This document shows positions 9,218-22,904 of a DNA stretch of 64,000 nucleotides, one piece after another. Each line of letters opens with the position of its first letter. Position 1 is the stretch's first letter. The stretch covers positions 40,286 to 104,285 of the forward strand of contig JACPUE010000021.1 of the NCBI GenBank assembly GCA_016192425.1. Reading direction: 5' to 3'. Source of the DNA: Burkholderiales bacterium (GTDB lineage Bacteria > Pseudomonadota > Gammaproteobacteria > Burkholderiales > Burkholderiaceae_C). The notes under the pieces were generated by a model. That model saw only the letters and a program-made list of their open reading frames with translations. It was not told the DNA's origin and did not search any database. Both the position numbers and the translations under genes were made by a program.

Positions 9218-10189
9218 TCAAGCCCTGCGCGGCACGGTCAGCCCCCACAGCAGGGCCAGCAGCAGGGCCGAGCCGGTGTTGTGCACCAGTACCAGGGCCA
9301 GCGGCAGCTCCCGGGCGACCATCGCCAGTCCCAGTGCGGCCAGCGCGGCAGGCAGGCACACCAGCAACGCGGCGGCCTTGCGCTGCCCCAGGCGCCAGCT
9401 GCGCCAGGCCAGCAGCCACAGCACGGCGGTCAGCAGCAAGCCGCCTGCGCGGTGCAGCAGGTGCACCCATGCGCCTTCTGCGCGCGTCGGCAAGGCGCCG
9501 GACGGGGGCTCCAGCCACGGGTTCAGCGCTTGCCAGGAACCTGCGGCCAGGTCGCAGCCGCCCGTGGCGGGACAGCTCAGGCCCACATGGCCTGCGCTCA
9601 CCAGCCCGCCCAGGGCCACCTGCGCCAGCAACACCAGGCCCGCCAGCCAGGCCCAGGGCGCCAGCGGTACAGCGCCGGGGCGTGCGGCAGAAGGTGCCGC
9701 AGCCACCAGCGCCAGGCGCACGCTCAGGGCCAGCATGGCAAAGCCACCCAAAAGGTTGCCCAGCGTCACTGCGGGCAGCCGGGACTGTGCCGTCCAGCGC
9801 CCCAGCACGGCCAGGAACAGCGCCAGCCCCAGGATGCACAGCGCGAGGCGGCCCTCGGGCCACAGGGCGGGACGCGATGCAAGGGCTGTTGCCAACATCG
9901 CCAGCACCAGCAGCAGGCTGGCAGATGCCACCACCCGGTGGGCCATGCGCGCGGAAGCGGTGGCGCCCTGCGCCGGTGTGGTTGGCGTGTCAGCCACGGT
10001 TGCCTGCTGGGCCTGGGCGTAGCACTGCGGCCAGGGCTCGCAGTCCAGGCCCGCCTTGGACAGGCGCAAAAAGGCACTCAGGCAGGTGATGAGCAGCACC
10101 ATGGCCGCACACACCCAGGCCATGCGCTGCAACCGCTGCCTGCGGCGGGCTACCGGCGTAGCCTGCAGGTTCAATTCAATATATTTCAT
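9218..10189 (-). CDS. ctaA: Heme A synthase, COX15/CtaA family
   Basis: A 323-aa polytopic inner-membrane protein with eight predicted helices in two four-helix halves. Conserved heme-ligand histidines sit at His84 (MAHRVVAS), His246 (LLHRAGG) and His303 (LVHNTG). Two extracytoplasmic Cys pairs are seen (Cys50/Cys56 and Cys206/Cys212). The family oxidises heme O to heme A for cytochrome oxidases. It is divergent from the heme-copper cluster starting at 10443, sharing a 253-nt intergenic region with an FNR-like site. This suggests that heme A or O can be supplied to that enzyme, which argues for an oxidase and is relevant to the alternative NO reductase idea. Start ATG 10189 is chosen because the upstream extension is cysteine-rich non-membrane sequence. 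Confidence 0.88.
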   Translation of the reverse strand: MKYIELNLQATPVARRRQRLQRMAWVCAAMVLLITCLSAFLRLSKAGLDCEPWPQCYAQAQQATVADTPTTPAQGATASARMAHRVVASASLLLVLAMLATALASRPALWPEGRLALCILGLALFLAVLGRWTAQSRLPAVTLGNLLGGFAMLALSVRLALVAAAPSAARPGAVPLAPWAWLAGLVLLAQVALGGLVSAGHVGLSCPATGGCDLAAGSWQALNPWLEPPSGALPTRAEGAWVHLLHRAGGLLLTAVLWLLAWRSWRLGQRKAAALLVCLPAALAALGLAMVARELPLALVLVHNTGSALLLALLWGLTVPRRA

Positions 10190-10363: not shown

Positions 10364-10377
10364 TTGATTCAGATCAT
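10364..10377 (+). promoter_or_regulatory. FNR/Anr-type box of the heme-copper cluster
   Basis: TTGAT-TCAG-ATCAT matches the FNR/Anr/Dnr consensus TTGAT-N4-ATCAA at 9 of 10 positions. A TATAAG hexamer (10405-10410) or AGAATA (10401-10406) lies downstream, at a distance compatible with class II activation. The start codon of the first gene is at 10443. No other good match is seen in the 253-nt divergent gap. The box also lies 175 nt upstream of ctaA on the other strand. It implies induction at low oxygen or by NO. Confidence 0.65.
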
Positions 10378-10442
10378 GTTTAAGCCGACAGTAAAGCTCA
10401 AGAATATAAGGTGCTGAAAAGCTTACCAAGGAGAAGTGAACC

Positions 10443-10598
10443 ATGAGCCACCATGACGATGAGAACGAGAAAGTCCCGTTCCTACAACAGTTGCTGGACA
10501 ACCCATTCCTGCTGCTGTTCCTGGGCGTGATGATTCCCATGATTGTGTACAACCTTTGGGGTGTCATTGACATTTTGACCATCCCCACAGCCAAGTAA
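10443..10598 (+). CDS. Small single-helix membrane peptide, candidate subunit IIa
   Basis: A 51-aa ORF with a strong Shine-Dalgarno (AAGGAG at 10428-10433) and ATG at 10443. The first 20 residues are polar and acidic (HHDDENEK). Residues 21-45 form one hydrophobic helix and the end is short and polar. It is the first gene of the cluster, 12 nt before the CuA subunit gene. Thermus-type ba3 oxidases carry a one-helix subunit IIa that replaces a helix missing from subunit II. By size, topology and position this peptide is a good candidate for that role, but I cannot show homology. Confidence 0.7.
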   Translation: MSHHDDENEKVPFLQQLLDNPFLLLFLGVMIPMIVYNLWGVIDILTIPTAK

Positions 10599-10610
10599 AG
10601 GAACACAGCC

Positions 10611-11150
10611 ATGAGCGCAATTCTTCCCCCCTCAGAGCGGTTGTGGTGGAAACACCCGCTGGACCGCCTCGAAGCCGTCTGGATCGGCATCGCCTTCGTC
10701 TGGTGCATGGTCATGTTCTTCATGATGGTGTTCTGGCACATCTACGGCAAGCAGAACCTTGCTACCGAAACCTACAAGACCGCACCGGAAAAGTACTCCG
10801 CCCAAGCCCAGGCTGTGGTGGACAAGTACACGGTACGCACCGAAACCGAGCAGAACATCCCCGTGGTGGCGCCTCCCGAAGGCTCCGACGTGTACATGGT
10901 CGCCCGCCTGTGGAACTGGTGGCCCATTCTTGAGCTGCAAAAGGGCAAGACCTACAAGCTGCACCTGACCTCCATGGACTACAACCATGGCTTCTCGCTG
11001 CAGCCCACCAACATCAACATCCAGGTGGTGCCGGGCTACGAGCACGTGATCAAGATCACGCCGAACGAGTCGGGCACCTTCTCCATCGTGTGCAACGAGT
11101 ATTGCGGCATTGGCCACCACGAGATGGTGGGTCGTATGTACGTGAAGTAA
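10611..11150 (+). CDS. Heme-copper reductase subunit II with CuA site
   Basis: A 179-aa protein with one N-terminal transmembrane helix (about 22-44) and a periplasmic cupredoxin domain. The CuA ligands are complete: His126 (DYNHGFSL), then Cys161, Glu163, Cys165, His169 and Met172 in CNEYCGIGHHEM. It has no cytochrome c extension and one helix instead of two, like the B-type (ba3) oxidases and the CuA subunits reported for sNOR-type NO reductases. CuA receives electrons from a soluble donor and passes them to the low-spin heme of subunit I. It sits 12 nt after the 51-aa peptide and 13 nt before subunit I. Confidence 0.92.
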   Translation: MSAILPPSERLWWKHPLDRLEAVWIGIAFVWCMVMFFMMVFWHIYGKQNLATETYKTAPEKYSAQAQAVVDKYTVRTETEQNIPVVAPPEGSDVYMVARLWNWWPILELQKGKTYKLHLTSMDYNHGFSLQPTNINIQVVPGYEHVIKITPNESGTFSIVCNEYCGIGHHEMVGRMYVK

Positions 11151-11163
11151 TGCGAGGAAAGCC

Positions 11164-12864
11164 ATGACCGTACAAACCACTTACCGTACCTGCCCGCGCT
11201 CGGGCCTGCAGTTTGAAAAGCAGGCTGAGACGCTCATGAAAATCAACGCCGTCACCGCCGTGGTGGCACTGCTCGTCGGGGGCCTGCTGGCCATCGGCGT
11301 GGTGCTGACCCGCTGGCCCGCGGTGCACTGGCTCGCGGCCGACACCTTCTACATGGTGCTCACGGCCCACGGCATCGACATGCTGATCTTCTGGATCATC
11401 TTCTTCGAAGTCGCCGTTCTGTACTTTGCCTCCTCCACCCTCTTGCGGTGCCGATTGGCGACACCCAAGATCGCCTGGGCCGCCTATGCGCTCATGCTGG
11501 TGGGTGCCGTGATGAACAACGTCTCGGTGTTCAAGGGCGATTCGAGCGTGATGATGACCTCCTATGTGCCCATGATGGCGCACTGGTCGTTTTACCTCGG
11601 CCTGATCCTGTTCGCCGTGGGCGCGCTCATTGCCTGCTTCATCTTCTTCGGCACGCTGGTGGTTGCCAAGCGCGAGAAGACCTATGAAGGCTCCGTGCCG
11701 CTGGTGACCTTCGGTGCCATCACGGCCGCCATCATCGCGGTGTTCACCATCAGCTCGGGTGCGATCATCCTGATCCCCACCTTCCTGCTGTCCGTGGGCG
11801 TGATCGACCAGGTCGATCCCCTGATCTACCGCACCATCTGGTGGGCTTTCGGCCACTCGTCGCAGCAGATCAACGTGGCTGCCCACATCTCGATCTGGTA
11901 CGCCGTCGCCGCCATCGCCTTTGGCGCCAAGCCCATGTCCGAGCGCGTCAGCCGTGGCGCCTTCCTGCTGTACATCCTGTTCCTGCAACTCGCCAGCGCC
12001 CACCACCTGCTTGCCGACCCCGGCATCAGCACCGAGTGGAAAGTGGTGAACACCAGCTACTTCATGTACTTTGCCGTGCTGGCATCCATGATCCACGCCC
12101 TGTCCATCCCTGGCGCCATGGAAGTGGCCCAGCGCGCACGCGGCTACAACAAAGGCCTGTTCGAATGGCTGCGCAAGGCGCCCTGGGGCAACCCGACATT
12201 CGCTGGCGTGTTCATCGCCATCGTGGGCTTCGGCTTCCTGGGCGGCATCACCGGCGTGATGATGGGTACCGAACAGCTCAACCTGCTGATCCACAACACC
12301 ATCTACGTGCCTGGCCACTTCCACGCCACCGTGGTGATCGGTACCACGCTGACCTTCATGGCCCTGACCTACTTCCTGATTCCCGTGCTGTTCCAGCGCG
12401 AGATGATCGCCCCTGGCCTGGCCAAGATCCAGCCGTACCTTTTCGGCTTTGCGATGTACTTCTTCTGCCTCGTGATGATGGGCGCAGGCACCCTGGGTGT
12501 CTCGCGCCGCCACTGGGACATGGCCTTCAGCGGCCATGCACTGGCCTATGAATGGCCCGGTGCTGCCTACCTGATGATGGGCCTGGTCGGTATCAGCGGC
12601 ATTACCGCCATCGCTGGCGGCGCCATCTTCGTGTACGTCACCGTGATGTCCGTGTTCTTCGGCAAGAAGCTCGACGCCGGTGTGGTCAGCCCCAAGTTCA
12701 CCCCGCTGATGCCTGCGGCTCCCACCGCTGCTGCGCAGACCTATGGTTCTGCCGGCTTCGTGGCGCCCGGCACCTTCGTGCTGGCGGTGTTCTTCCTCGT
12801 GACCTTTGTGCTGTACTACTTCGTGAACTGGAAGTACCTCGGCCAGCTGTGGGGTCTGAGCTGA
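11164..12864 (+). CDS. Heme-copper oxidoreductase subunit I without the active-site Tyr
   Basis: A 566-aa polytopic protein with about 13 helices. All metal ligands can be seen: His69 (low-spin heme), His231, His280 and His281 (CuB), His385 (high-spin heme) and His387 (low-spin heme, in GHFHATV). In oxygen reductases of types A and B the residue four after the helix VI His is the cross-linked Tyr (HPEVY). Here it is HSSQQ, with Gln235. Classical cNOR/qNOR have Glu at this place. Loss of the Tyr is known for several NO reductase families (sNOR, eNOR and others), so this may be an NO reductase. The ctaA and ctaB neighbours argue for heme A or O and hence an oxidase. Annotators would usually call it a b(o/a)3-type oxidase. 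Confidence 0.9.
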   Translation: MTVQTTYRTCPRSGLQFEKQAETLMKINAVTAVVALLVGGLLAIGVVLTRWPAVHWLAADTFYMVLTAHGIDMLIFWIIFFEVAVLYFASSTLLRCRLATPKIAWAAYALMLVGAVMNNVSVFKGDSSVMMTSYVPMMAHWSFYLGLILFAVGALIACFIFFGTLVVAKREKTYEGSVPLVTFGAITAAIIAVFTISSGAIILIPTFLLSVGVIDQVDPLIYRTIWWAFGHSSQQINVAAHISIWYAVAAIAFGAKPMSERVSRGAFLLYILFLQLASAHHLLADPGISTEWKVVNTSYFMYFAVLASMIHALSIPGAMEVAQRARGYNKGLFEWLRKAPWGNPTFAGVFIAIVGFGFLGGITGVMMGTEQLNLLIHNTIYVPGHFHATVVIGTTLTFMALTYFLIPVLFQREMIAPGLAKIQPYLFGFAMYFFCLVMMGAGTLGVSRRHWDMAFSGHALAYEWPGAAYLMMGLVGISGITAIAGGAIFVYVTVMSVFFGKKLDAGVVSPKFTPLMPAAPTAAAQTYGSAGFVAPGTFVLAVFFLVTFVLYYFVNWKYLGQLWGLS

Positions 12865-12880
12865 TCGGAAGCCTTGAGCG

Positions 12881-13780
12881 ATGCACACCACCACGCTCAA
12901 GCCCGCCGGGCGCAGCATGGGCCAGATGGCGCGCGACGTCATCTCGCTGTTCAAGCTGCGCATCGGTGTGCTGATCATGATTACCGCGCTCGTGGGCATG
13001 GCGATCGCGCCAGGAAAGGCACTCAGCTTCATGCAGGTGCTGATCCTGGCCGTGTCCGTGCTCCTGGCGTCGGCAAGCGCGGGGGCGTTCAACCAGTATG
13101 TCGAGTACGAGAGCGACCGCTTGATGGAGCGCACCAAAAAGCGCGCCTTCGTCACGGGTGCGTTGCCCCACCATCCTGCCTGGCTGGTCCTGATGGCCGT
13201 GCTGCTGGCGGGGGCCGTGGGCGCTACCTGGGCCGCACTCAATGGCGTTGCGGCGCTTCACGTGTTTCTCGGTGCATTCTTCTACGGGGTGGTCTACACC
13301 CTGTGGCTGAAGCGGCGCACTTCCCTCAACATCGTCATCGGTGGCCTTGCGGGGAGTTTTGCCGTGCTGGCGGGCGCTGCCGCCGTAGATCCGGCGCTGG
13401 GGCCCCTGCCCTGGCTGCTGGCCCTGGTGCTGTTCCTGTGGACACCGCCCCATTTCTGGAGCCTGGCCATCGCCAACCGCGACGACTACGCCCAGGCGGG
13501 CGTGCCCATGCTTCCCGTCGTTGTGGGCCCCGAGCGTGCCGCCCGCACCGTGCTGGTGAGCACCGTGGCGCTGTTCGTCGCCTCGCTGCTGCCCCTGGCC
13601 TACGGTGCAGGCCCGGTGTATGCCGTGGGCGCACTCGCTGGCGGACTGCACTTTGTGCGCAAATCCTGGCTGCTCGCGCGCAAGCCCGAGCGTGCCACGG
13701 CCATGGGTTCCTTCTTTGCATCGCTGGTGCAGTTGAGCGTCCTGCTGGTCGCCGCCTGCATTGATGCCGTGCTGCGCTGA
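12881..13780 (+). CDS. ctaB: Protoheme IX farnesyltransferase (heme O synthase)
   Basis: A 299-aa UbiA-superfamily membrane prenyltransferase that adds farnesyl to heme b to make heme O. The first prenyl-diphosphate motif is NQYVEYESDRLMERTKKR (about 67-84). The second conserved region is YTLWLKRRTSLNIVIGG (about 144-160), and the PPHFWSLAI loop is intact. It lies 16 nt after subunit I and runs directly into the SCO gene, whose Shine-Dalgarno overlaps its TGA. Its presence inside the cluster suggests the enzyme uses heme O or, with ctaA, heme A at one site. Confidence 0.95.
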   Translation: MHTTTLKPAGRSMGQMARDVISLFKLRIGVLIMITALVGMAIAPGKALSFMQVLILAVSVLLASASAGAFNQYVEYESDRLMERTKKRAFVTGALPHHPAWLVLMAVLLAGAVGATWAALNGVAALHVFLGAFFYGVVYTLWLKRRTSLNIVIGGLAGSFAVLAGAAAVDPALGPLPWLLALVLFLWTPPHFWSLAIANRDDYAQAGVPMLPVVVGPERAARTVLVSTVALFVASLLPLAYGAGPVYAVGALAGGLHFVRKSWLLARKPERATAMGSFFASLVQLSVLLVAACIDAVLR

Positions 13781-13791
13781 AGGAGCATGTT

Positions 13792-14655
13792 GTGGCCCGG
13801 TCGCTCCTGTCCCGCATACGCCAGGCTGCTGCATGCTGCGGCTTGGGGCTGGCCCTGGCGCTGCCCGCCGCAGCGTCGGACCAGCGGGACGCTGCCGCCG
13901 ACCTGGGCCTGGACCGTGAGCAGGCATTGCGCGCGAGCCAGGCTGCCGTCGGCCGCACGATCGGCGACCACATCCTTCTGAACCGTGAGGGCCGTCCTGT
14001 GGCCCTCTCCTCATTCCGGGGCAAGCCCCTGCTGGTGAGCTTCATCTACACCGGCTGCTTCCAGGTGTGCCCCACCACCACCAAGTCCCTGCAGGATGCG
14101 GTGGAGGGCCTCCAGAAAAGCCTGGGGCCCAACCAGTTCAACGTGGTGAGCATTGGCTTCAACCAGCCGGCCGATTCGCCGCAGGCCCTCAAGGCCTTTG
14201 CCACCCAGTACAACATCAAGCAGTCCAACTGGGACTTCCTCAGCCCCCCGGCCGCCATCGTGCCTGCGCTGGCCAAGGATTTCGGCTTTGTGTACACCGC
14301 CACCCCCGCCGGATTCGACCATGTGCTCCAGGTCTCCCTCGTGGATGCCCAGGGGCGCATCGTGCGCCAGGTGTATGGCGAATCCGTTGCACCTGCCGAA
14401 CTGGGCGAGCCCCTCAAGATGCTGCTGGCGGGGACACCGGTCGAGTCCAACCAGTTGCTGGACAACCTGGTGGACAGGGTGCGCATCCTGTGCACCGTGT
14501 ACGACCCCAAGACGGGCGCCTACCGCGTGGACTACACCCTGCCCATCCAGATCGCCGGGGGCGTGACCTTTTTTGTCCTGATGCTGGTTTTCTTCATCAA
14601 CGAATGGCGCTCCAGCCGGCAGAGCGCACGCAACAAGGGGGTGCGTAGCGCCTGA
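13792..14655 (+). CDS. SCO1/SenC/PrrC copper chaperone
   Basis: A 287-aa thioredoxin-fold protein. The copper and redox ligands Cys89 and Cys93 are in CFQVC, with His177 in FDHVLQ. An N-terminal signal peptide (cut near ALPAAA-SD) and a C-terminal helix (about 256-276) place the domain in the periplasm, anchored by its C terminus, which is less usual than N-terminal anchoring. The family delivers copper to CuA. GTG at 13792 is chosen because AAGGAG ends 6 nt upstream. Its place after subunit I recalls the senC gene next to sNOR genes of ammonia oxidisers, as well as ordinary cytochrome oxidase operons. Confidence 0.92.
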   Translation: MARSLLSRIRQAAACCGLGLALALPAAASDQRDAAADLGLDREQALRASQAAVGRTIGDHILLNREGRPVALSSFRGKPLLVSFIYTGCFQVCPTTTKSLQDAVEGLQKSLGPNQFNVVSIGFNQPADSPQALKAFATQYNIKQSNWDFLSPPAAIVPALAKDFGFVYTATPAGFDHVLQVSLVDAQGRIVRQVYGESVAPAELGEPLKMLLAGTPVESNQLLDNLVDRVRILCTVYDPKTGAYRVDYTLPIQIAGGVTFFVLMLVFFINEWRSSRQSARNKGVRSA

Positions 14656-14669
14656 CGCTCGCCAGTTCC

Positions 14670-16259
14670 ATGTCTCTGCCAGGTACAGCCTTCCCCCCCG
14701 AAGGCCCCAGCATCTCTCCCTCCCTCTCGCCGGTTTCCCGCCTCGCTGCCACCTACCGGGCTTTGGAGCACGCGTTCGACGGAGCCTTCGGCCCGGCGCT
14801 CAACCCGCTCAAGCACCTGGGGGCGCTGGGTTTCATGCTGCTGTGGCTGCTGGTGGTCAGTGGCACGGTGCTCTACATCGTGCTCGACACCTCGGCTGCC
14901 GGTGCCTACCGCTCCATCGAATCCCTGACCAAAGTGCCCTGGATGCTGGGCACCGCCCTGCGCGGCGTGCACCGCTACGCGGCCGATGCGTTTGTCGTCG
15001 TCATGGGCGCACACATTGCGCGCGAATGGGTGCTGGGCCACTACCGGCACTTTCGTACCGTGCCCTGGATCACCGGGGTGCCGCTGGTGGCCCTGGCCTT
15101 TGTCTGCGCCGTGGGGGGCTTCTGGCTCAACTGGGATCGCCTGGGCCAGTATTCCGTGGTGTCCACGGCCGAGTGGATCGACACCCTGCCTTTCCTGGCC
15201 TCGCCCTTGGCACGCAACTTTCTGGGGGGCGTGAGCCTCAGCGACCGGCTGTTCACCCTGTTCGTGTTCATCCACATCGGCATGCCCTTGCTGATGATCT
15301 TTGGCCTGTGGTTCCACATCCAGCGCATCAGCCTGGCCAAGGTGTTCCCACCGCGAGCCCTGGCCTGGGGCACCTTTGCCACCTTGTTAGCGCTGTCCTT
15401 CGTGGCGCCAGTGGTCAGCCAGGGGCCTGCAGACCTTGGCACGGTACCCGCGGTGCTGGCGATCGACTGGATTCTGCTGTTCATCCACCCGCTGATCGAT
15501 GCCACCTCGCCGCTGGTGGTGTGGGGGCTGCTGGGGCTGGCGTTTGTACTGCTGTCGGTGCCGCCGTTCCTGCCTGCGCCGCCCCCGGCACCGGTTGCGG
15601 TGGTGTACCCCGACCACTGCAGCGGCTGCGGGCGCTGCTTTGACGACTGCCCCTATTCGGCCATCACCATGGTGCCGCACCCCAACGGACGCCGGGGCAT
15701 GCGCATGGCCGAGGTGAATGCCGATCTCTGCGCAGGCTGCGGCATCTGCGCGGGCGCGTGCCCGTCGTCCACCCCCTTCCGCAGCGCCGAGGTACTGGTC
15801 ACCGGTATCGACATGCCGCAATGGCCCGTGAACGACCTGCGCCAGCAGCTGGTGCAACGCCTGGCCGCCATGCCGGGCCCCCGGCGCCTGGTCGTCTTTG
15901 GCTGTGAACAAGGCGCCCGCACCCGCCTGGACGCCCCCGACGTGCTGCATTTCCCGCTGGTGTGCGCAGGCATGTTGCCGCCCTCCTTTGTGGAATACGC
16001 GCTGCGTGCGGGTGCCGACGGCGTGCTCATCAACGGCTGCCGCGAAGGCGGCTGCGAATTCCGCCTGGGCCAGCGCTGGACCGCCCAGCGCCTGAGCGGC
16101 GAGCGCGAACCCCATCTGCGCAGTTCGGTACCTGCCGAACGCTGGCGCACTGCCTGGACCGACCCCGGCGACGAACGCGCACTGGCGGCTGCCGTGGACG
16201 AATTGCGCAGGCACTGCGATGCCGGCGCCCCCCCTGAACTTGAGGAGAAAAACCGATGA
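14670..16259 (+). CDS. Cytochrome b - 2x[4Fe-4S] ferredoxin - MvhD-type fusion
   Basis: A 529-aa three-part protein. Residues about 25-300 are a cytochrome b/b6-like membrane domain with two bis-His heme sites (His101/His202 and His115/His216, spacing 14 in both helices). Residues 317-327 and 354-364 are two CxxCxxCxxxC [4Fe-4S] motifs. Residues about 405-470 resemble the MvhD/FrhD delta subunit that carries a [2Fe-2S] cluster, with Cys412, Cys432, Cys457 and Cys462. MvhD links hydrogenase to heterodisulfide reductase in methanogens and is often fused to HdrA in bacteria; fusion to a cytochrome b is unusual. Electrons could pass between a cytoplasmic donor and membrane hemes. Its stop overlaps the next start (ATGA). 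Confidence 0.88.
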   Translation: MSLPGTAFPPEGPSISPSLSPVSRLAATYRALEHAFDGAFGPALNPLKHLGALGFMLLWLLVVSGTVLYIVLDTSAAGAYRSIESLTKVPWMLGTALRGVHRYAADAFVVVMGAHIAREWVLGHYRHFRTVPWITGVPLVALAFVCAVGGFWLNWDRLGQYSVVSTAEWIDTLPFLASPLARNFLGGVSLSDRLFTLFVFIHIGMPLLMIFGLWFHIQRISLAKVFPPRALAWGTFATLLALSFVAPVVSQGPADLGTVPAVLAIDWILLFIHPLIDATSPLVVWGLLGLAFVLLSVPPFLPAPPPAPVAVVYPDHCSGCGRCFDDCPYSAITMVPHPNGRRGMRMAEVNADLCAGCGICAGACPSSTPFRSAEVLVTGIDMPQWPVNDLRQQLVQRLAAMPGPRRLVVFGCEQGARTRLDAPDVLHFPLVCAGMLPPSFVEYALRAGADGVLINGCREGGCEFRLGQRWTAQRLSGEREPHLRSSVPAERWRTAWTDPGDERALAAAVDELRRHCDAGAPPELEEKNR

Positions 16260-16759
16260 ACCGCGTACTCAACTGGACCGGCCAGGCCCTGCTGTACGGC
16301 AGCTTTGCCGTGGCACTTGGGGTGTTTTCACGCTGGCCTGTGTACCACCCCTTGCCGCCGGACATGGCGCAGATCAAGGTCAGCTTCATCCACCACGGCC
16401 AGCGCATCGCCGATTGCCGCGCCTACACCGCCGAAGAGCAGGCCAAGATGGCCAAGAACATGCGCAAGGCCATGAAGTGCGAGCGCGAGCGTTCACCGGT
16501 CAGCATCGAGGTGGACATCGACGGCAAGTCCATGGTGCGCCACACCTCGGCGCCTTCGGGACTGTCGCGCGACGGCGCATCCACCGTGTACCAGCGGCTG
16601 GATCTGCCCGCGGGCGAACACCGCATTGCCGTGCGCTTCAAGGACAACAAGGCGGTCGAAGGCTTCACCCATGAGCGTGAGGAGACCGTGGTTCTCAAGT
16701 CCGGGCAGGTCATGGTGATCGACTTCAACCCCGACAAGGGAGGCATTGTTCTGCTATGA
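16256..16759 (+). CDS. Unknown membrane-anchored protein of the respiratory cluster
   Basis: A 167-aa protein with one N-terminal helix (about 9-27) and then a periplasmic domain of about 135 residues. That domain has a Lys/Met-rich segment (EEQAKMAKNMRKAMKCERERS), two cysteines (about 54 and 75) and a beta-rich second half with GEHRIAVRFKD. I do not recognise the family. Its shape recalls small assembly or maturation proteins of oxidase operons such as FixH/CcoH-like or copper chaperones. It overlaps both neighbours by 4 nt (ATGA), so it is translated with them and should act in the same complex. No CxxxC or Met-rich copper site is evident. Confidence 0.8.
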   Translation: MNRVLNWTGQALLYGSFAVALGVFSRWPVYHPLPPDMAQIKVSFIHHGQRIADCRAYTAEEQAKMAKNMRKAMKCERERSPVSIEVDIDGKSMVRHTSAPSGLSRDGASTVYQRLDLPAGEHRIAVRFKDNKAVEGFTHEREETVVLKSGQVMVIDFNPDKGGIVLL

Positions 16760-18195
16760 CCGCAGGTACTTCCCCCCTGCCTGGCGTGCAGGGCAAGCCC
16801 CAGGCCTCGTCGCCTGCCGCGCACGCGGGCACGGACTACCAGCTGAGCGTTCCCCAGGACGCGCGCCAGGCCTTGGCACGGGGCTGGCTCTGGCTCGGCG
16901 TGGCCGCACTGATCGGCTCCGGGCTGTTCTCGGTGCTGCTGGTGGTGTCGCGCACGCCTTACGTGAACCAATGGCTCCCGGCGGCCAACTTCTTCCACAT
17001 CTCGCTGGTGCTGCACGTGGACCTGTCGGTGCTGGTGTGGTTCGTATCCATGGCGGGCCTGCTGTGGAGCCTGCACGCCAGCCAGCGTGCGCAAGGGGCT
17101 GGCTGGCTGGCGCTGTGGGTGACGGCCGCAGGCACGCTGGCCATGGCGCTGGCGCCCTTTCTGGCGCCGGGCGAACCCATCATGGCCAACTACATCCCGG
17201 TGCTGGAATCGCCGCTGTTCCTGGCCGGGCTGGTGGTGTTTGGCGTGGGGATCACCCTGCTGGTGCTGCGCAGCCTGTGGGCCGCACCCCGCTGGAGTCT
17301 GCAGTACGACGGGCAGGGGGCGCTGCACTTCGGCCTGCGCGGCGCCGCTGCGGCCACCGCCGTCGCGTTGCTGTGCTTTGCCTGGTCCTGGGCGGTGCTT
17401 CCCACCAGCCTGGAGGGCAAGGCGTACTACGAAATCCTGTTCTGGGGCGGCGGGCATGCGCTGCAGTTCACCTGGACGCTGCTCATGCTCGTGGTCTGGC
17501 TCTGGCTGGCCAGCGCCTGCGGCGCCCGTGTGGTGTTGAGTCCGCGTGTGGCGGTGCTGATGTTCCTGCTGGCGCTGCTGGGGGTGTTTGTCACCCCCTA
17601 TGCCTACCTGGCCTACGACGTGGCCTCGGTGGAACACCGCAACCTGCTCACCTGGGCCATGCGCCTGGGGGGCGGCCCGGCCATCGTACCCGTGGGCATG
17701 GCCGCCGTGCTGGGCGTGGCGCTGGTGCGCTCCCTGGATGCAGACCTGCGCCCGCTGCGTGCGGCGCTGCTGTCATCGGTGCTGCTCTTTGGCGCGGGCG
17801 GCGTCATCGGCATCTTCATCCAAGGCAGCAACGTGCGCATTCCTGCGCACTACCACGGTTGCATCGTGGGTGTCACGCTCGCGCTCATGGGGGCGGTCTA
17901 CCGCATCCTGCCCTCGCTGGGTTACGCCGCGCCCCAGGGGCGCATGGCCACCTGGCAGCCCTGGCTGTATGGCATGGGGCAGCTCATGCACATCATCGGG
18001 CTGGTCTGGTCCGGCGGCTATGGCGTGCAGCGCAAGGTGGCCGGCACCGACCAGGTGCTGCGCAGCACCGCCGAAGTGGCGGGCATGGGCCTCATGGGCC
18101 TGGGCGGTCTCATTGCCATCATCGGCGGGCTGCTGTTTGTGGTGGTGGTGATCCGCACCATCCGCCAGCCGCACCCCAGTGCAGCCCAAGGCTGA
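16756..18195 (+). CDS. Second heme-copper subunit-I-like protein with altered CuB site
   Basis: A 479-aa membrane protein of about 12 helices related to oxidase subunit I. The helix II heme ligand His87 (VLHVDLSVLVW) and the helix X pair His365/His367 (IPAHYHGCIVG) are present. Helix VI has His234 in GGGHALQF, with Phe238 where oxidases have Tyr. The helix VII His-His pair appears as His294-Arg295 (VEHRNLL). So both hemes may bind, while CuB would lack a ligand. It has no CuA partner of its own, and lies between the unknown anchored protein (4 nt overlap) and the cytochrome b-flavoprotein gene (13 nt). It could be an electron-transfer subunit, a non-canonical NO reductase or a sensor. Confidence 0.85.
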   Translation: MTAGTSPLPGVQGKPQASSPAAHAGTDYQLSVPQDARQALARGWLWLGVAALIGSGLFSVLLVVSRTPYVNQWLPAANFFHISLVLHVDLSVLVWFVSMAGLLWSLHASQRAQGAGWLALWVTAAGTLAMALAPFLAPGEPIMANYIPVLESPLFLAGLVVFGVGITLLVLRSLWAAPRWSLQYDGQGALHFGLRGAAAATAVALLCFAWSWAVLPTSLEGKAYYEILFWGGGHALQFTWTLLMLVVWLWLASACGARVVLSPRVAVLMFLLALLGVFVTPYAYLAYDVASVEHRNLLTWAMRLGGGPAIVPVGMAAVLGVALVRSLDADLRPLRAALLSSVLLFGAGGVIGIFIQGSNVRIPAHYHGCIVGVTLALMGAVYRILPSLGYAAPQGRMATWQPWLYGMGQLMHIIGLVWSGGYGVQRKVAGTDQVLRSTAEVAGMGLMGLGGLIAIIGGLLFVVVVIRTIRQPHPSAAQG

Positions 18196-18208
18196 AGGAA
18201 TACGAACA

Positions 18209-20134
18209 ATGATCAAGAAACTCCAAGACCTGTTGCAATGGCTTTTCCTCAAGGCCGAGGGCCTGTTCAATGCCGCCTTTGGTGACCGCATCAACCCCTT
18301 CTACCACCTGGGCGCCATCACCTTCTTCCTGTTCTGGGTGGTGGGTGCCACCGGCCTGTACCTGTATGTGTTCTTCGAAACCGGCATTGCCGAGGCCTAC
18401 TCCTCGGTCATAGCGCTCACCGAGCACCAGTGGTGGATGGGCGGCATCATGCGCAGCGTGCACCGCTACGCCTCCGATGCCATGGTGCTGACCATGGTGC
18501 TGCACATGCTGCGCTACTTCGCATTCAACCTGTACCACGGGTTCCGCTGGTTCTCGTGGGTTACGGGTGTCATGCTGATCTGGATGGTCTATGCCTCGGG
18601 GATCAACGGCTACATGCTCCCCTGGGACCAGATGGCGCAGTACATCACGGTCTCCAGCTTTGAATGGCTGGACTGGCTGCCGATCTTCAACGGCACGCTG
18701 ATGCGCAACTTCCTCTACTCCGACCACGTGGGCGATCGCTTCTTCACGCTGCTGTCCTTCATGCACCTGGGCATTCCGCTGGTGTTGCTGATGATCATGT
18801 GGATCCACGTGCAGCGCGTGCCCAAGGCGCGCACCACGCCGCCGCGCCCCATCGTCGTTGGCATGCTGCTGACCTTTCTGGTGCTCTCGCTGGTGGCCCC
18901 GGTGCACAGCCAGGGCGGGGTGAGCAACCTGGCCAGGGCCGTGACCGAGGTGAAGCTGGACTGGTTCTACATGGCCGTGTTTCCCTTGATTACCGACTGG
19001 CCCCTGGCCCGTGTGTGGGCGCTGGTGGTGGGCGCCTCAGTGCTGCTGGCCCTGCTGCCCTGGTGGCCGCCGCAGTTCCGCCGCGGCGACAAGCGTGTGC
19101 ACCAGGTGGTGGTGCACGGTGCAGAGGGTGCGAGCGCCGACTTCAAGGTGCGCGAGGGCGAAACCATTCTGGATGCAGGCCTGCGCCAGGGCCTGGCCCT
19201 GCCCTACGAATGCCGCAACGGCGGCTGCGGCCTGTGCGTGTGCAGCGTGGAACAGGGCAGCATCGAGCACCGCCCCTACCAGCGCAGCGCCCTGCCCGAC
19301 GCCCAGAAGGCCCAGGGCAAGGCACTCATGTGCTGCGCCGTGCCCAAGGGCGATCTGGTCATCGACGTGGAAGGCTTCACCGGCGCAGAGCACCAACAGG
19401 CCGAAGTGCACACCGCCACCGTGGCGCAACTGGAGCGCCTGGCAGACGACGTGATGCGCGTGCTGCTGCAACTGCCCGAAGGCAAGGTGCTGGATTTCAG
19501 CGCTGGCCAGTACATCGACATCCTGCTGGAAGATGGCCAACGCCGCGCGTTCTCGTTTGCCAACCGTCCCGGCGAGAGCCGCCAGATCGAACTGCATGTG
19601 CGCCTGGTGCCCGGCGGGCGCTTCACCACCCACGTGTTCCAGGGCATGAAGGTGGGCGACACCCTGCGCTTCGAAGGCCCGCGCGGCAGCTTCACGCTGC
19701 GCGAAAGCCAGCACCCCATCCTCTTCGTGGCCGGGGCCACGGGCTTTGCGCCCATCAAGAGCATTGTCGAAGACGCCTTTGCGCGCGGCGTGCAGCGCCC
19801 CATGCGCCTGTATTGGGGCACGCGCAAGCCGCAGGACCTCTACATGCTGGAGCGCTGCGAGCAATGGCAGCGCGAGCATGCCAACTTCACCGTGGTGCCC
19901 GTGGTGTCCGACGCCAGCGAGGGCGACGGCTGGACCGGCCGCACCGGCCTGGTCCACGAGGCCATGCTGGCCGACTTTACCGACCTCAGCGGCCACGAGG
20001 TGTACCTGTGCGGCTCCGTCAAGATGGTGGAGACGGCCGTGCCCGCCTTCATCGCCCAGGGGCTGGACGAAAACGCCTGCTTCTCGGACGCCTTCCTGAT
20101 GGCCGCCCCGGCCCAGGCCCCGGCGCAGCAGTAA
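18209..20134 (+). CDS. Cytochrome b - [2Fe-2S] - FAD/NAD(P)H reductase fusion
   Basis: A 641-aa protein with three modules. Residues about 15-290 form a cytochrome b/b6-like membrane domain with His85/His186 and His99/His200, spacing as in the fusion at 14670. Residues about 297-390 are a plant-type [2Fe-2S] ferredoxin (Cys335, Cys340, Cys343, Cys375). Residues about 398-630 are a ferredoxin-NADP reductase-like domain with the FAD motif RAFSFAN, the pyridine-nucleotide loop AGATGFAPIKS and YLCGSVKMV. It can pass electrons from NAD(P)H through FAD and iron-sulfur to membrane hemes in one chain. ATG 18209 is preceded by GAAGGAA. An in-frame start 10 codons earlier overlaps the previous gene and is less likely. 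Confidence 0.9.
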   Translation: MIKKLQDLLQWLFLKAEGLFNAAFGDRINPFYHLGAITFFLFWVVGATGLYLYVFFETGIAEAYSSVIALTEHQWWMGGIMRSVHRYASDAMVLTMVLHMLRYFAFNLYHGFRWFSWVTGVMLIWMVYASGINGYMLPWDQMAQYITVSSFEWLDWLPIFNGTLMRNFLYSDHVGDRFFTLLSFMHLGIPLVLLMIMWIHVQRVPKARTTPPRPIVVGMLLTFLVLSLVAPVHSQGGVSNLARAVTEVKLDWFYMAVFPLITDWPLARVWALVVGASVLLALLPWWPPQFRRGDKRVHQVVVHGAEGASADFKVREGETILDAGLRQGLALPYECRNGGCGLCVCSVEQGSIEHRPYQRSALPDAQKAQGKALMCCAVPKGDLVIDVEGFTGAEHQQAEVHTATVAQLERLADDVMRVLLQLPEGKVLDFSAGQYIDILLEDGQRRAFSFANRPGESRQIELHVRLVPGGRFTTHVFQGMKVGDTLRFEGPRGSFTLRESQHPILFVAGATGFAPIKSIVEDAFARGVQRPMRLYWGTRKPQDLYMLERCEQWQREHANFTVVPVVSDASEGDGWTGRTGLVHEAMLADFTDLSGHEVYLCGSVKMVETAVPAFIAQGLDENACFSDAFLMAAPAQAPAQQ

Positions 20135-20147
20135 GCAGCCCCAAAGC

Positions 20148-20182
20148 AAAGCGCCCGGCGCCTGTGCGGTGCCGGGCGCTTT
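20148..20182 (+). terminator. Rho-independent terminator after the respiratory cluster
   Basis: The 12-bp stem AAAGCGCCCGGC (20148-20159) pairs with GCCGGGCGCTTT (20171-20182), with an 11-nt loop and a run of T. It lies 13 nt after the last stop codon of the cluster. On the other strand it ends facing ubiD, whose stop is 12 nt away, so it may serve both. Confidence 0.85.
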
Positions 20183-20194
20183 TTTATTCCCGCG

Positions 20195-21821: not shown

Positions 21822-22904
21822 TCAGTCTTCTGCGCCATCGACCCCCTCCTGCGCATTGAGATCCATCGTCAGGCGGATCGCTTGCGCCTCGCGGGCCAGC
21901 TCGCTGCGCAACTCTTCTTCACTCGGCAAAACCAGTTGGTAGCGGCTGGCAAACAGTTGCTCGCTGCCGTTGAGCACCGAATAGCGCACCACGGACTGGT
22001 CTTTGTCCTCGCACAGCATAATGCCCACCGTGGGGTTGTCGCCATCGCCGCGCTTCAAGTCGTCGTACATGCGTACATACATATCCATCTGGCCGATGTC
22101 CTGGTGGGTCAGCTCGGTGGTTTTCAGGTCGATCAGCACAAAGCACTTGAGCAGGTAGTTGTAGAACACCAGGTCGATATAGAAATCCTTGCTCTCGGTG
22201 CTCACCCGCTGCTGGCGGGCCACAAAGGCAAAGCCCTTGCCCAGCTCCAGCAAAAAGGCCTGCAATTTGTCCATCAAGCCCTGTTCCAAACTGGATTCCA
22301 GCAAAGCACGGTTGCCGGGCAGCCCCAAAAACTCCAGCATCACCGGGTCGCGTACAAAGGCGCGCGGGCTTTGCGCCAATGCGGCCAGGTTTTTTCCGGC
22401 TTCAGCGGCAACGGCGGCCTTGTCCTGGCTGAGCAGCAGACGCTCGTAAAACAGCGTGCCGATCTGGCGCTGCAGGGCGCGGGTGCTCCAGTTCTGGGCA
22501 GCGGCCTCGGCCATGTACCACTGGCGGGCGTCGATGCTTTGCACCTTGGACAGCAGGCGGTAGTGTGTCCAGCTCAATTCGTGACGCAGCGCGTCACGTT
22601 TTGGAAACGCCTGATAAAACAAGCGCATATAGCGCAGGTTGGACGCATCAAAGCCGCTGCCAAACTCCCCCGTCAGTTGCTCGGCCAGCAGTGGCAGCAG
22701 CCGCTTGCCATAAACCGCCCGCGCCGCGCCGCCTTGCTCAAACTCCACAATGTGGTGGCCTACCTGCCAGCAGGTTTGTACCTGAATGACATCCACCGCG
22801 CGCAGCGCCCGGCTGCGTGCATCGCTGATGAGCTGGCGCAGCGTGCCTAGCAAGGGGGCAAGGTCAGCGCTGCCTGCCAAAGGCTTATTGCCCGCCATCG
22901 CCAT
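21822..22904 (-). CDS. DUF1016 family PD-(D/E)XK nuclease-like protein
   Basis: A 360-aa protein of the YhcG/DUF1016 family. The N-terminal helical domain (about 15-160) includes YGKRLLPLLAEQL and NLRYMRLFYQAFP. The C-terminal half has a PD-(D/E)XK nuclease core: DFYIDLVFYNY, then VLIDLKTTELTHQDIGQM, with the Asp...Asp-x-Lys pattern and a motif IV Gln. Such genes are common in defence islands and near type I restriction genes. It overlaps an upstream 58-codon ORF by 20 nt and lies between ubiX and ubiD, so it was probably inserted into a formerly contiguous ubiXD pair. No restriction subunit is found here. Confidence 0.88.
   Translation of the reverse strand: MAMAGNKPLAGSADLAPLLGTLRQLISDARSRALRAVDVIQVQTCWQVGHHIVEFEQGGAARAVYGKRLLPLLAEQLTGEFGSGFDASNLRYMRLFYQAFPKRDALRHELSWTHYRLLSKVQSIDARQWYMAEAAAQNWSTRALQRQIGTLFYERLLLSQDKAAVAAEAGKNLAALAQSPRAFVRDPVMLEFLGLPGNRALLESSLEQGLMDKLQAFLLELGKGFAFVARQQRVSTESKDFYIDLVFYNYLLKCFVLIDLKTTELTHQDIGQMDMYVRMYDDLKRGDGDNPTVGIMLCEDKDQSVVRYSVLNGSEQLFASRYQLVLPSEEELRSELAREAQAIRLTMDLNAQEGVDGAED

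What the first reader, a model, noticed from the sequence alone, without database searches (positions are those of the whole stretch)
10364..20186. Nine-gene FNR-linked respiratory cluster with two heme-copper-like subunits and two cytochrome b fusions
Genes from 10443 to 20134 all read one way, with spacings mostly below 20 nt and ATGA overlaps, between an FNR-type box and a strong terminator. They encode a CuA-type reductase, its heme O and copper maturation, a second subunit-I-like protein and two cytochrome b fusions that could feed electrons from NAD(P)H or a ferredoxin/MvhD partner. I know no characterised complex with this composition. It may be one supercomplex joining cytoplasmic reductant to a periplasm-linked reductase.
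Basis: partly seen in the sequence, partly recalled or inferred. Interest (0 to 1): 0.85.

Follow-up and report, generated by a model that had tools for sequence, protein, structure and literature searches.

The report
NO reductase with built-in electron feed
This stretch encodes an eNOR-type enzyme, predicted to reduce nitric oxide to nitrous oxide, beside two membrane cytochrome b fusion proteins and a twin subunit with an incomplete copper site that would likely supply its electrons; the same gene set recurs across many related bacteria, most of them with a nitrite reductase and, in the family sampled, usually without the standard cytochrome-c nitric oxide reductase.

Summary
The cluster is real: nine co-directional genes (10443-20134), gaps of -4 to 16 nt, an FNR-like box and a terminator. 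Its CuA-type reductase has the diagnosis of eNOR, a known nitric oxide reductase class: full CuA motif and heme-copper histidines, with Gln235 where O2 reductases have the cross-linked Tyr. In 200 genomes of the family, eNOR and the second subunit-I-like protein occur in the same 23. Among 57 nirS+ genomes, eNOR and cytochrome-c NOR nearly exclude each other (18 eNOR only, 34 cNOR only, 3 both, 2 neither). The subunit-I-like protein is an eNOR relative that keeps the heme ligands but has no His pair at the CuB position. Both cytochrome b fusions keep four heme His and their Fe-S cysteines; of 107 assessable loci (some duplicated) none lacks both. The set also lies near cNOR in Candidatus Nitricoxidivorans perseverans, enriched on NO and reported to lack complex III; 'eNOR' does not occur in that paper's main text. 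Best reading: NO reductase with its own electron feed. The NOR identity is well supported; the feed is inferred. New variant of a known kind.

The parts
9218..10189 (-). CtaA/COX15-like protein (323 aa, start chosen by me), divergent from the operon; conserved tenth gene with the catalytic Glu replaced by Arg and His H2 by Asn
   Evidence: Pfam PF02628, 103.7 bits; CtaA-like match at 74 of 107 loci tested; residue counts
10364..10377 (+). FNR-like box TTGATTCAGATCAT between the divergent CtaA-like gene and the operon
   Evidence: recurs before the first gene in orthologous loci
10443..10598 (+). 51-aa one-helix protein, perhaps like subunit IIa of B-family enzymes (recalled, untested)
   Evidence: present in 20 of 20, 63 of 68 and 19 of 19 assessable loci
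10611..11150 (+). Subunit II, membrane-anchored cupredoxin with CuA motif CxExCxxxHxxM
   Evidence: COX2 hit; C161, E163, C165, H169, M172 conserved in 65 orthologues
11164..12864 (+). eNOR catalytic subunit I (H69, H231, Q235, H280, H281, H385, H387)
   Evidence: COX1; aligned to ba3 oxidase; conserved in 66 orthologues
12881..13780 (+). CyoE, heme O synthase
   Evidence: NCBIfam TIGR01473 over cut-off
13792..14655 (+). SCO1/SenC copper maturation protein
   Evidence: PF02630
14670..16259 (+). Cytochrome b + two 4Fe-4S + FlpD/MvhD fusion (H101, H115, H202, H216; 12 conserved Cys)
16256..16759 (+). Orphan: one helix plus a beta-sandwich-like domain, conserved H46, C54, C75
   Evidence: no Pfam or NCBIfam family; alignment A3; model pLDDT 93.6
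16756..18195 (+). I-like: eNOR-related subunit I with heme ligands kept and no His pair at the CuB (TM7) position
18209..20134 (+). Cytochrome b + 2Fe-2S + FAD + NAD(P) fusion (H85, H99, H186, H200; C335, C340, C343, C375)
20148..20182 (+). Intrinsic terminator stem-loop, followed by a T-run

Best explanation
The locus encodes an eNOR-type nitric oxide reductase, predicted to reduce NO to N2O, together with a membrane module that likely delivers its electrons without needing cytochrome bc1. Subunits I and II are the catalytic pair (two hemes, CuB, Gln235; CuA); CyoE and SCO would make heme O and load copper. Each cytochrome b fusion would carry electrons from a cytoplasmic donor (NAD(P)H through FAD and 2Fe-2S, or a ferredoxin-like donor through FlpD and two 4Fe-4S clusters) over two b hemes towards the periplasmic side. 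The I-like protein, an eNOR relative that keeps heme ligands but not the CuB His pair, would be the partner that hands these electrons to CuA/eNOR. Shown by sequence: gene content, cofactor ligands, conservation, co-occurrence. Inferred: NO as substrate, heme types, direction of electron flow, a physical complex.
For: Gln at the active-site Tyr position plus a CuA subunit II is the published eNOR diagnosis (PMC8756737, passages). eNOR and cNOR nearly exclude each other among nirS+ genomes, and counting eNOR gives 64 of 65 nir+ genomes some NOR instead of 51. I-like occurs in exactly the 23 eNOR genomes of 200; in Rhodocyclaceae in 39 of 40 genomes with the FNR fusion against 6 of 40 without. 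Of 107 assessable loci 101 have both fusions, 3 only the FNR type, 3 only the Fd type, none neither. Both fusions keep two heme His pairs and Fe-S cysteines. FNR-like box recurs before the first gene. The set, with a cNOR 5.6 kb away, is in Ca. N. perseverans, enriched on NO and reported to lack bc1, b6f and ACIII.
Against: No activity, complex or expression was shown. eNOR has a CuA subunit and could be fed by cytochrome c like other CuA enzymes. Phylum-wide, I-like was in 56 of 249 genomes and eNOR lay in 2 of 16 I-like stretches fetched there, so I-like also serves elsewhere. I-like can be far from the cluster. The window's own genome also has cNOR and qNOR, and so does not need eNOR as its only NOR. 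Ca. N. perseverans also has cNOR, the only NOR its authors report.
Confidence: 0.58

Rival explanations
1. eNOR is an ordinary cytochrome-c-fed NO reductase (bc1 to cytochrome c to CuA); the fusions, I-like and the CtaA-like protein are co-regulated but do another job under NO or low oxygen, such as NAD(P)H:quinone redox balance, heme handling or NO protection.
For: CuA subunit II; mobile position of the FNR fusion and I-like; I-like without eNOR beside it in other groups.
Against: Co-occurrence of I-like with eNOR in 23 of 23 family genomes and none of 177 others; no assessable locus without a fusion; Ca. N. perseverans reported to lack complex III.
Confidence: 0.28
2. The module runs the other way: quinol oxidation is split, one electron going to NO and the other over the cytochrome b fusions up to NAD(P)+ or ferredoxin (a bifurcating NO reductase).
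For: b6-type cytochrome b domains and an HdrA/MvhD-like FlpD end; such ends occur in bifurcating enzymes (established knowledge).
Against: No Rieske family or other quinol-splitting partner among the nine products; no tool evidence on direction.
Confidence: 0.1
3. The reductase is a low-oxygen O2 reductase rather than a NO reductase.
For: Nearest solved relatives by sequence are B-family O2 reductases; an FNR-like box also fits low oxygen.
Against: The Tyr position holds a conserved Gln; strong tie to nirS and near exclusion of cNOR.
Confidence: 0.04

Closest known systems
eNOR (Hemp and Gennis; Murali et al. 2024, not held here, known through PMC8756737, PMC11388526 and PMC12569097)
   Same: B-family-like subunit I, Gln at the active-site Tyr position, cupredoxin subunit II
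   Different: Conserved neighbourhood with an eNOR-like twin, two cytochrome b fusions, an orphan and a CtaA-like protein; whether Murali et al. describe this is unknown to me
cNOR (NorBC) and qNOR
   Same: Predicted reaction; co-occurrence with nirS
   Different: cNorB scores below zero against eNOR and I-like profiles; no cytochrome c or qNOR N-terminal domain among the nine products
B-family ba3-type O2 reductase
   Same: Fold, six His, CuA subunit; best sequence matches in the PDB
   Different: Gln instead of the cross-linked Tyr
BenC/MmoC-type reductases (for the FNR fusion)
   Same: 2Fe-2S + FAD + NAD order over residues 306-629
   Different: Fused to a four-His cytochrome b
HdrA2 C-terminal / MvhD (FlpD) electron-transfer domains (for the Fd fusion)
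   Same: Two 4Fe-4S + FlpD
   Different: Fused to a four-His cytochrome b; no HdrA flavin domain found
Heme A synthase CtaA (for the divergent gene)
   Same: Family PF02628; His H1, H3, H4 kept
   Different: Catalytic Glu and His H2 replaced in nearly all locus copies

Membership tests
eNOR | Gln at the active-site position that is Tyr in O2 reductases | tested here: met
   Q235 aligns with the ba3 Tyr; at least 97% conserved in 66 orthologues; criterion from PMC8756737
eNOR | Cupredoxin (CuA) subunit II next to subunit I | tested here: met
   10611-11150, COX2 just under cut-off, CuA motif conserved
eNOR | Derived from B-family O2 reductases | tested here: met
   Best PDB sequence matches are 7deg and ba3; eNOR profile scores a B-family-like protein 211 bits, aa3-like at most 28.5, cNorB -5; no tree was built
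eNOR | One proton channel | not tested
   listed in PMC8756737 Table A4
eNOR | Reduces NO to N2O | not testable with these tools
   indirect genome evidence only
cbb3 oxidase subunit I (NCBI name given to I-like relatives) | CuB site with a TM7 His pair | tested here: not met
   eNOR H280/H281 align with A283/Y284 of I-like; no HH there in 81 close and 25 broad rows; single H284 in 1 of 81 and 9 of 25
cNOR | NorB-type subunit I with cytochrome c partner | tested here: not met
Cytochrome bc1/b6f | Cytochrome b with two bis-His hemes | tested here: met
   four conserved His spaced 14 in both fusions
Cytochrome bc1/b6f | Rieske protein and cytochrome c1/f partner in the unit | tested here: not met
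   none among the nine products
Heme A synthase (CtaA) | Catalytic Glu (E57) and His H2 (PMC12808453, passages) | tested here: not met
   window has Arg81 and Asn145; Arg in 78 of 83 and Asn in 81 of 84 matched stretches

The most novel reading that the evidence does not exclude
A self-contained NAD(P)H/ferredoxin:NO oxidoreductase that bypasses complex III: a catalytic eNOR paired with its own twin, which has turned from a gas-reducing subunit into an electron conduit between interchangeable transmembrane cytochrome b-flavin/Fe-S wires and the CuA site. It would be a third wiring plan for NO respiration beside cytochrome-c-fed and quinol-fed NORs, and would explain how a bacterium enriched on NO lives without complex III.
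Probability: 0.3. Interest if true: 0.85.

Novelty: new variant of a known kind. Interest (0 to 1): 0.64.

Why it matters
NO reductases decide how much N2O denitrifiers make. In this family sample 13 of 65 genomes with nirS or nirK show neither cNOR nor qNOR and have eNOR (one has an ambiguous cNorB match), so surveys that look only for norB would misread them. If the fusions feed eNOR from NAD(P)H or ferredoxin, NO respiration has an entry that does not need complex III. Published proteome data for Ca. N. perseverans could test part of this at once.

Tried and rejected
I-like as a second active NOR or a cbb3 subunit: rejected as a classification because no His pair stands at the CuB position and its profile scores eNOR at 110-122 bits, a B-family-like protein at 44 and 22, and aa3-like and cNorB sequences below zero; another metal site (H234 with H412, E293/H294 or, in some groups, H284) is not excluded.

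The divergent CtaA as proof of a heme A enzyme: dropped after finding Glu and H2 replaced. In G469 and G428 a high-scoring CtaA also lies beside eNOR, so the heme type stays open. FNR-like boxes before the FNR fusion were mostly I-like coding sequence at fixed positions; L156 and L180, where that gene stands apart, may have a real one. The orphan gave a confident model but no match with E at or below 0.001 in the PDB. P0006 had no PDB sequence match at E up to 1. No Rfam family or tRNA in the window. The lead that the 'novel cytochrome' of Accumulibacter (recalled; mentioned without detail in PMC2289847) is the FNR fusion was not testable: no Accumulibacter name stood among the 120 rows listed. 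Reading the phylum-wide I-like genomes as Zetaproteobacteria or Magnetococcia is a guess left out of the argument. No tree was built.

What I say is not in print rests on searches; Murali et al. 2024 is not held, so its treatment of the neighbourhood is unknown to me. Papers seen as passages found by term: PMC8756737, PMC10734462, PMC8114936, PMC2289847, PMC10390337, PMC12569097, PMC13274419, PMC12548093 (its one match was the word 'enormous'), PMC11388526, PMC12808453, PMC13213658. None was read whole; no supplements were seen.
Full report
What is there. The nine genes lie as described, 10443-20134, with gaps of -4 to 16 nt, an FNR-like box at 10364-10377 and a terminator at 20148-20182. Products: a 51-aa one-helix protein; COX2-type CuA subunit; COX1; CyoE; SCO; cytochrome b + two 4Fe-4S + FlpD; an orphan; a second COX1; cytochrome b + 2Fe-2S + FAD + NAD. 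A tenth gene, 9218-10189 on the - strand, is a CtaA/COX15-like protein divergent from the operon.

The enzyme. By sequence, subunit I matches 7deg and ba3 oxidase best in the PDB. It keeps H69, H231, H280, H281, H385 and H387, and where ba3 has the cross-linked Tyr it has Gln235; all of these are at least 97% conserved in 66 orthologues. Gln there plus a cupredoxin subunit II is the published diagnosis of eNOR (PMC8756737, passages). eNOR is said to be biochemically characterised (PMC11388526, passage); the source, Murali et al. 2024, was not held.

Does it act as a NO reductase? Of 200 genomes of the GTDB family, 23 have this eNOR at 71% identity or more; 23 further genomes with weaker matches (up to 34%) were counted as without. 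NirS (479 bits or more) is in 21 of 23 against 36 of 177; NirS or NirK in 22 of 23 against 43 of 177. G402, with a split NirS match, was counted as without. With cNorB of pSymA as query, matches of 240 bits or more were counted as cNOR (46 genomes); G338 and G317, at 32%, were counted as without. Among 57 nirS+ genomes: eNOR only 18, cNOR only 34, both 3, neither 2 (both with qNOR), Fisher p = 7e-10. Of 65 nir+ genomes 64 hold some NOR when eNOR counts and 51 when it does not; 13 eNOR genomes show neither cNOR nor qNOR. The genomes are related, so p is not a strict probability. qNOR is in 8 of 23 eNOR genomes. The window's own genome has nirS, nirK, cNOR and qNOR too. In 9 of the 12 eNOR genomes where I compared places on one contig, nirS lies 3 to 9 kb from the cluster.

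How fixed is the unit? In the family, 20 of 20 assessable eNOR neighbourhoods hold both fusions, the orphan, SCO and I-like; two truncated ones were set aside. Of 80 named loci picked as the best I-like matches, 32 have exactly this order and 11 the order FNR fusion - orphan - Fd fusion - I-like; of the 68 assessable, 62 have both fusions, 3 only the FNR type (L108, L163, L170) and 3 only the Fd type (L143, L160, L162); L125 and L177, FNR type only, were set aside as short. A whole-genome search agrees for two of these: G445 (L108) shows no Fd fusion and G444 (L143) no full FNR fusion. In 19 Rhodocyclaceae neighbourhoods picked by the FNR fusion, all 19 have eNOR and both fusions; I-like is in the stretch in 11. 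At least seven stretches of the family set recur among the named loci by equal contig lengths, so the 107 are not all distinct. L145, a 10-kb contig, has I-like and an Fd-fusion match near an aa3-like oxidase and no eNOR. L085, from another class, has two Fd fusions and no FNR fusion.

The wires. Both fusions keep two His pairs spaced for two b hemes and their Fe-S cysteines. That either can be missing but in no assessable locus both suggests interchangeable inputs; the direction of flow is inferred.

The CtaA-like gene. A match lies at 74 of 107 loci with a subunit II at 55% or more, divergent upstream in 59 and downstream in 15; 12 of the other 33 have too little upstream sequence. The catalytic Glu is Arg in 78 of 83 and H2 is Asn in 81 of 84 matched stretches; four copies from elsewhere in genomes, that of the window's own genome included, have Glu and His (L211-L214). 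PMC12808453 (passages) reports that H2 mutants to Leu or Met are inactive. So a second altered relative belongs to the locus, likely not making heme A itself.

Regulation. In the 300 bp before the first gene the best FNR-like box has at most 1 mismatch in 27 of 64 and at most 2 in 51 of 64 loci, against 0.24 and 4.4 in shuffles.

An organism enriched on NO. The FNR-fusion search returned a protein named for Candidatus Nitricoxidivorans perseverans on a contig of 2,704,353 bases; G469 has the 100% match on a contig of that length. There, the small protein, subunits II and I, CyoE, SCO, both fusions and the orphan lie at about 2.584-2.592 Mb, I-like on the other strand beside them, and a cNorB (58% to pSymA) about 5.6 kb from the cluster. 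The enrichment paper (PMC10390337, passages) lists only NorB/NorC as NOR, reports two heme-copper oxidases and no bc1, b6f or ACIII, and proposes another electron route; 'eNOR' has 0 occurrences in its main text. Supplements were not seen, so its tables may list these proteins under oxidase names.

Verdict. eNOR-type NO reductase: well supported. Dedicated electron feed by twin and fusions, bypassing complex III: most likely, unproven. New variant of a known kind.

Noticed in passing
window 9218-10189 (-): CtaA-family protein with Arg for the catalytic Glu and Asn for His H2, conserved beside eNOR clusters: perhaps a heme-binding pseudoenzyme or heme chaperone.
   Followed up: partly
L186, L187 (G469:C1:2570000-2599999): Genome matching Ca. 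Nitricoxidivorans perseverans carries the eNOR set near its cNOR, with two CtaA-family genes divergent from it.
   Followed up: partly
L090, L092: I-like relatives beside a strong CtaA gene and an MFS transporter, without eNOR in the stretch: the I-like family has a wider role.
   Followed up: no
L085, L086: Clusters from another class with two cytochrome b-Fd-FlpD fusions in a row and no FNR fusion.
   Followed up: no
G000:C3, C6, C17, C52, C67: The window's genome holds nirS, nirK, qNOR, cNOR and eNOR, an unusually full set of NO-making and NO-using genes.
   Followed up: no
window 16256-16759: Orphan membrane-anchored protein with invariant H46, C54 and C75 and no family; confident model without a clear fold match.
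   Followed up: partly
window 21825-22904 (-): YhcG/DUF1016-type PDDEXK nuclease gene beyond a UbiD gene that converges on the operon.
   Followed up: no
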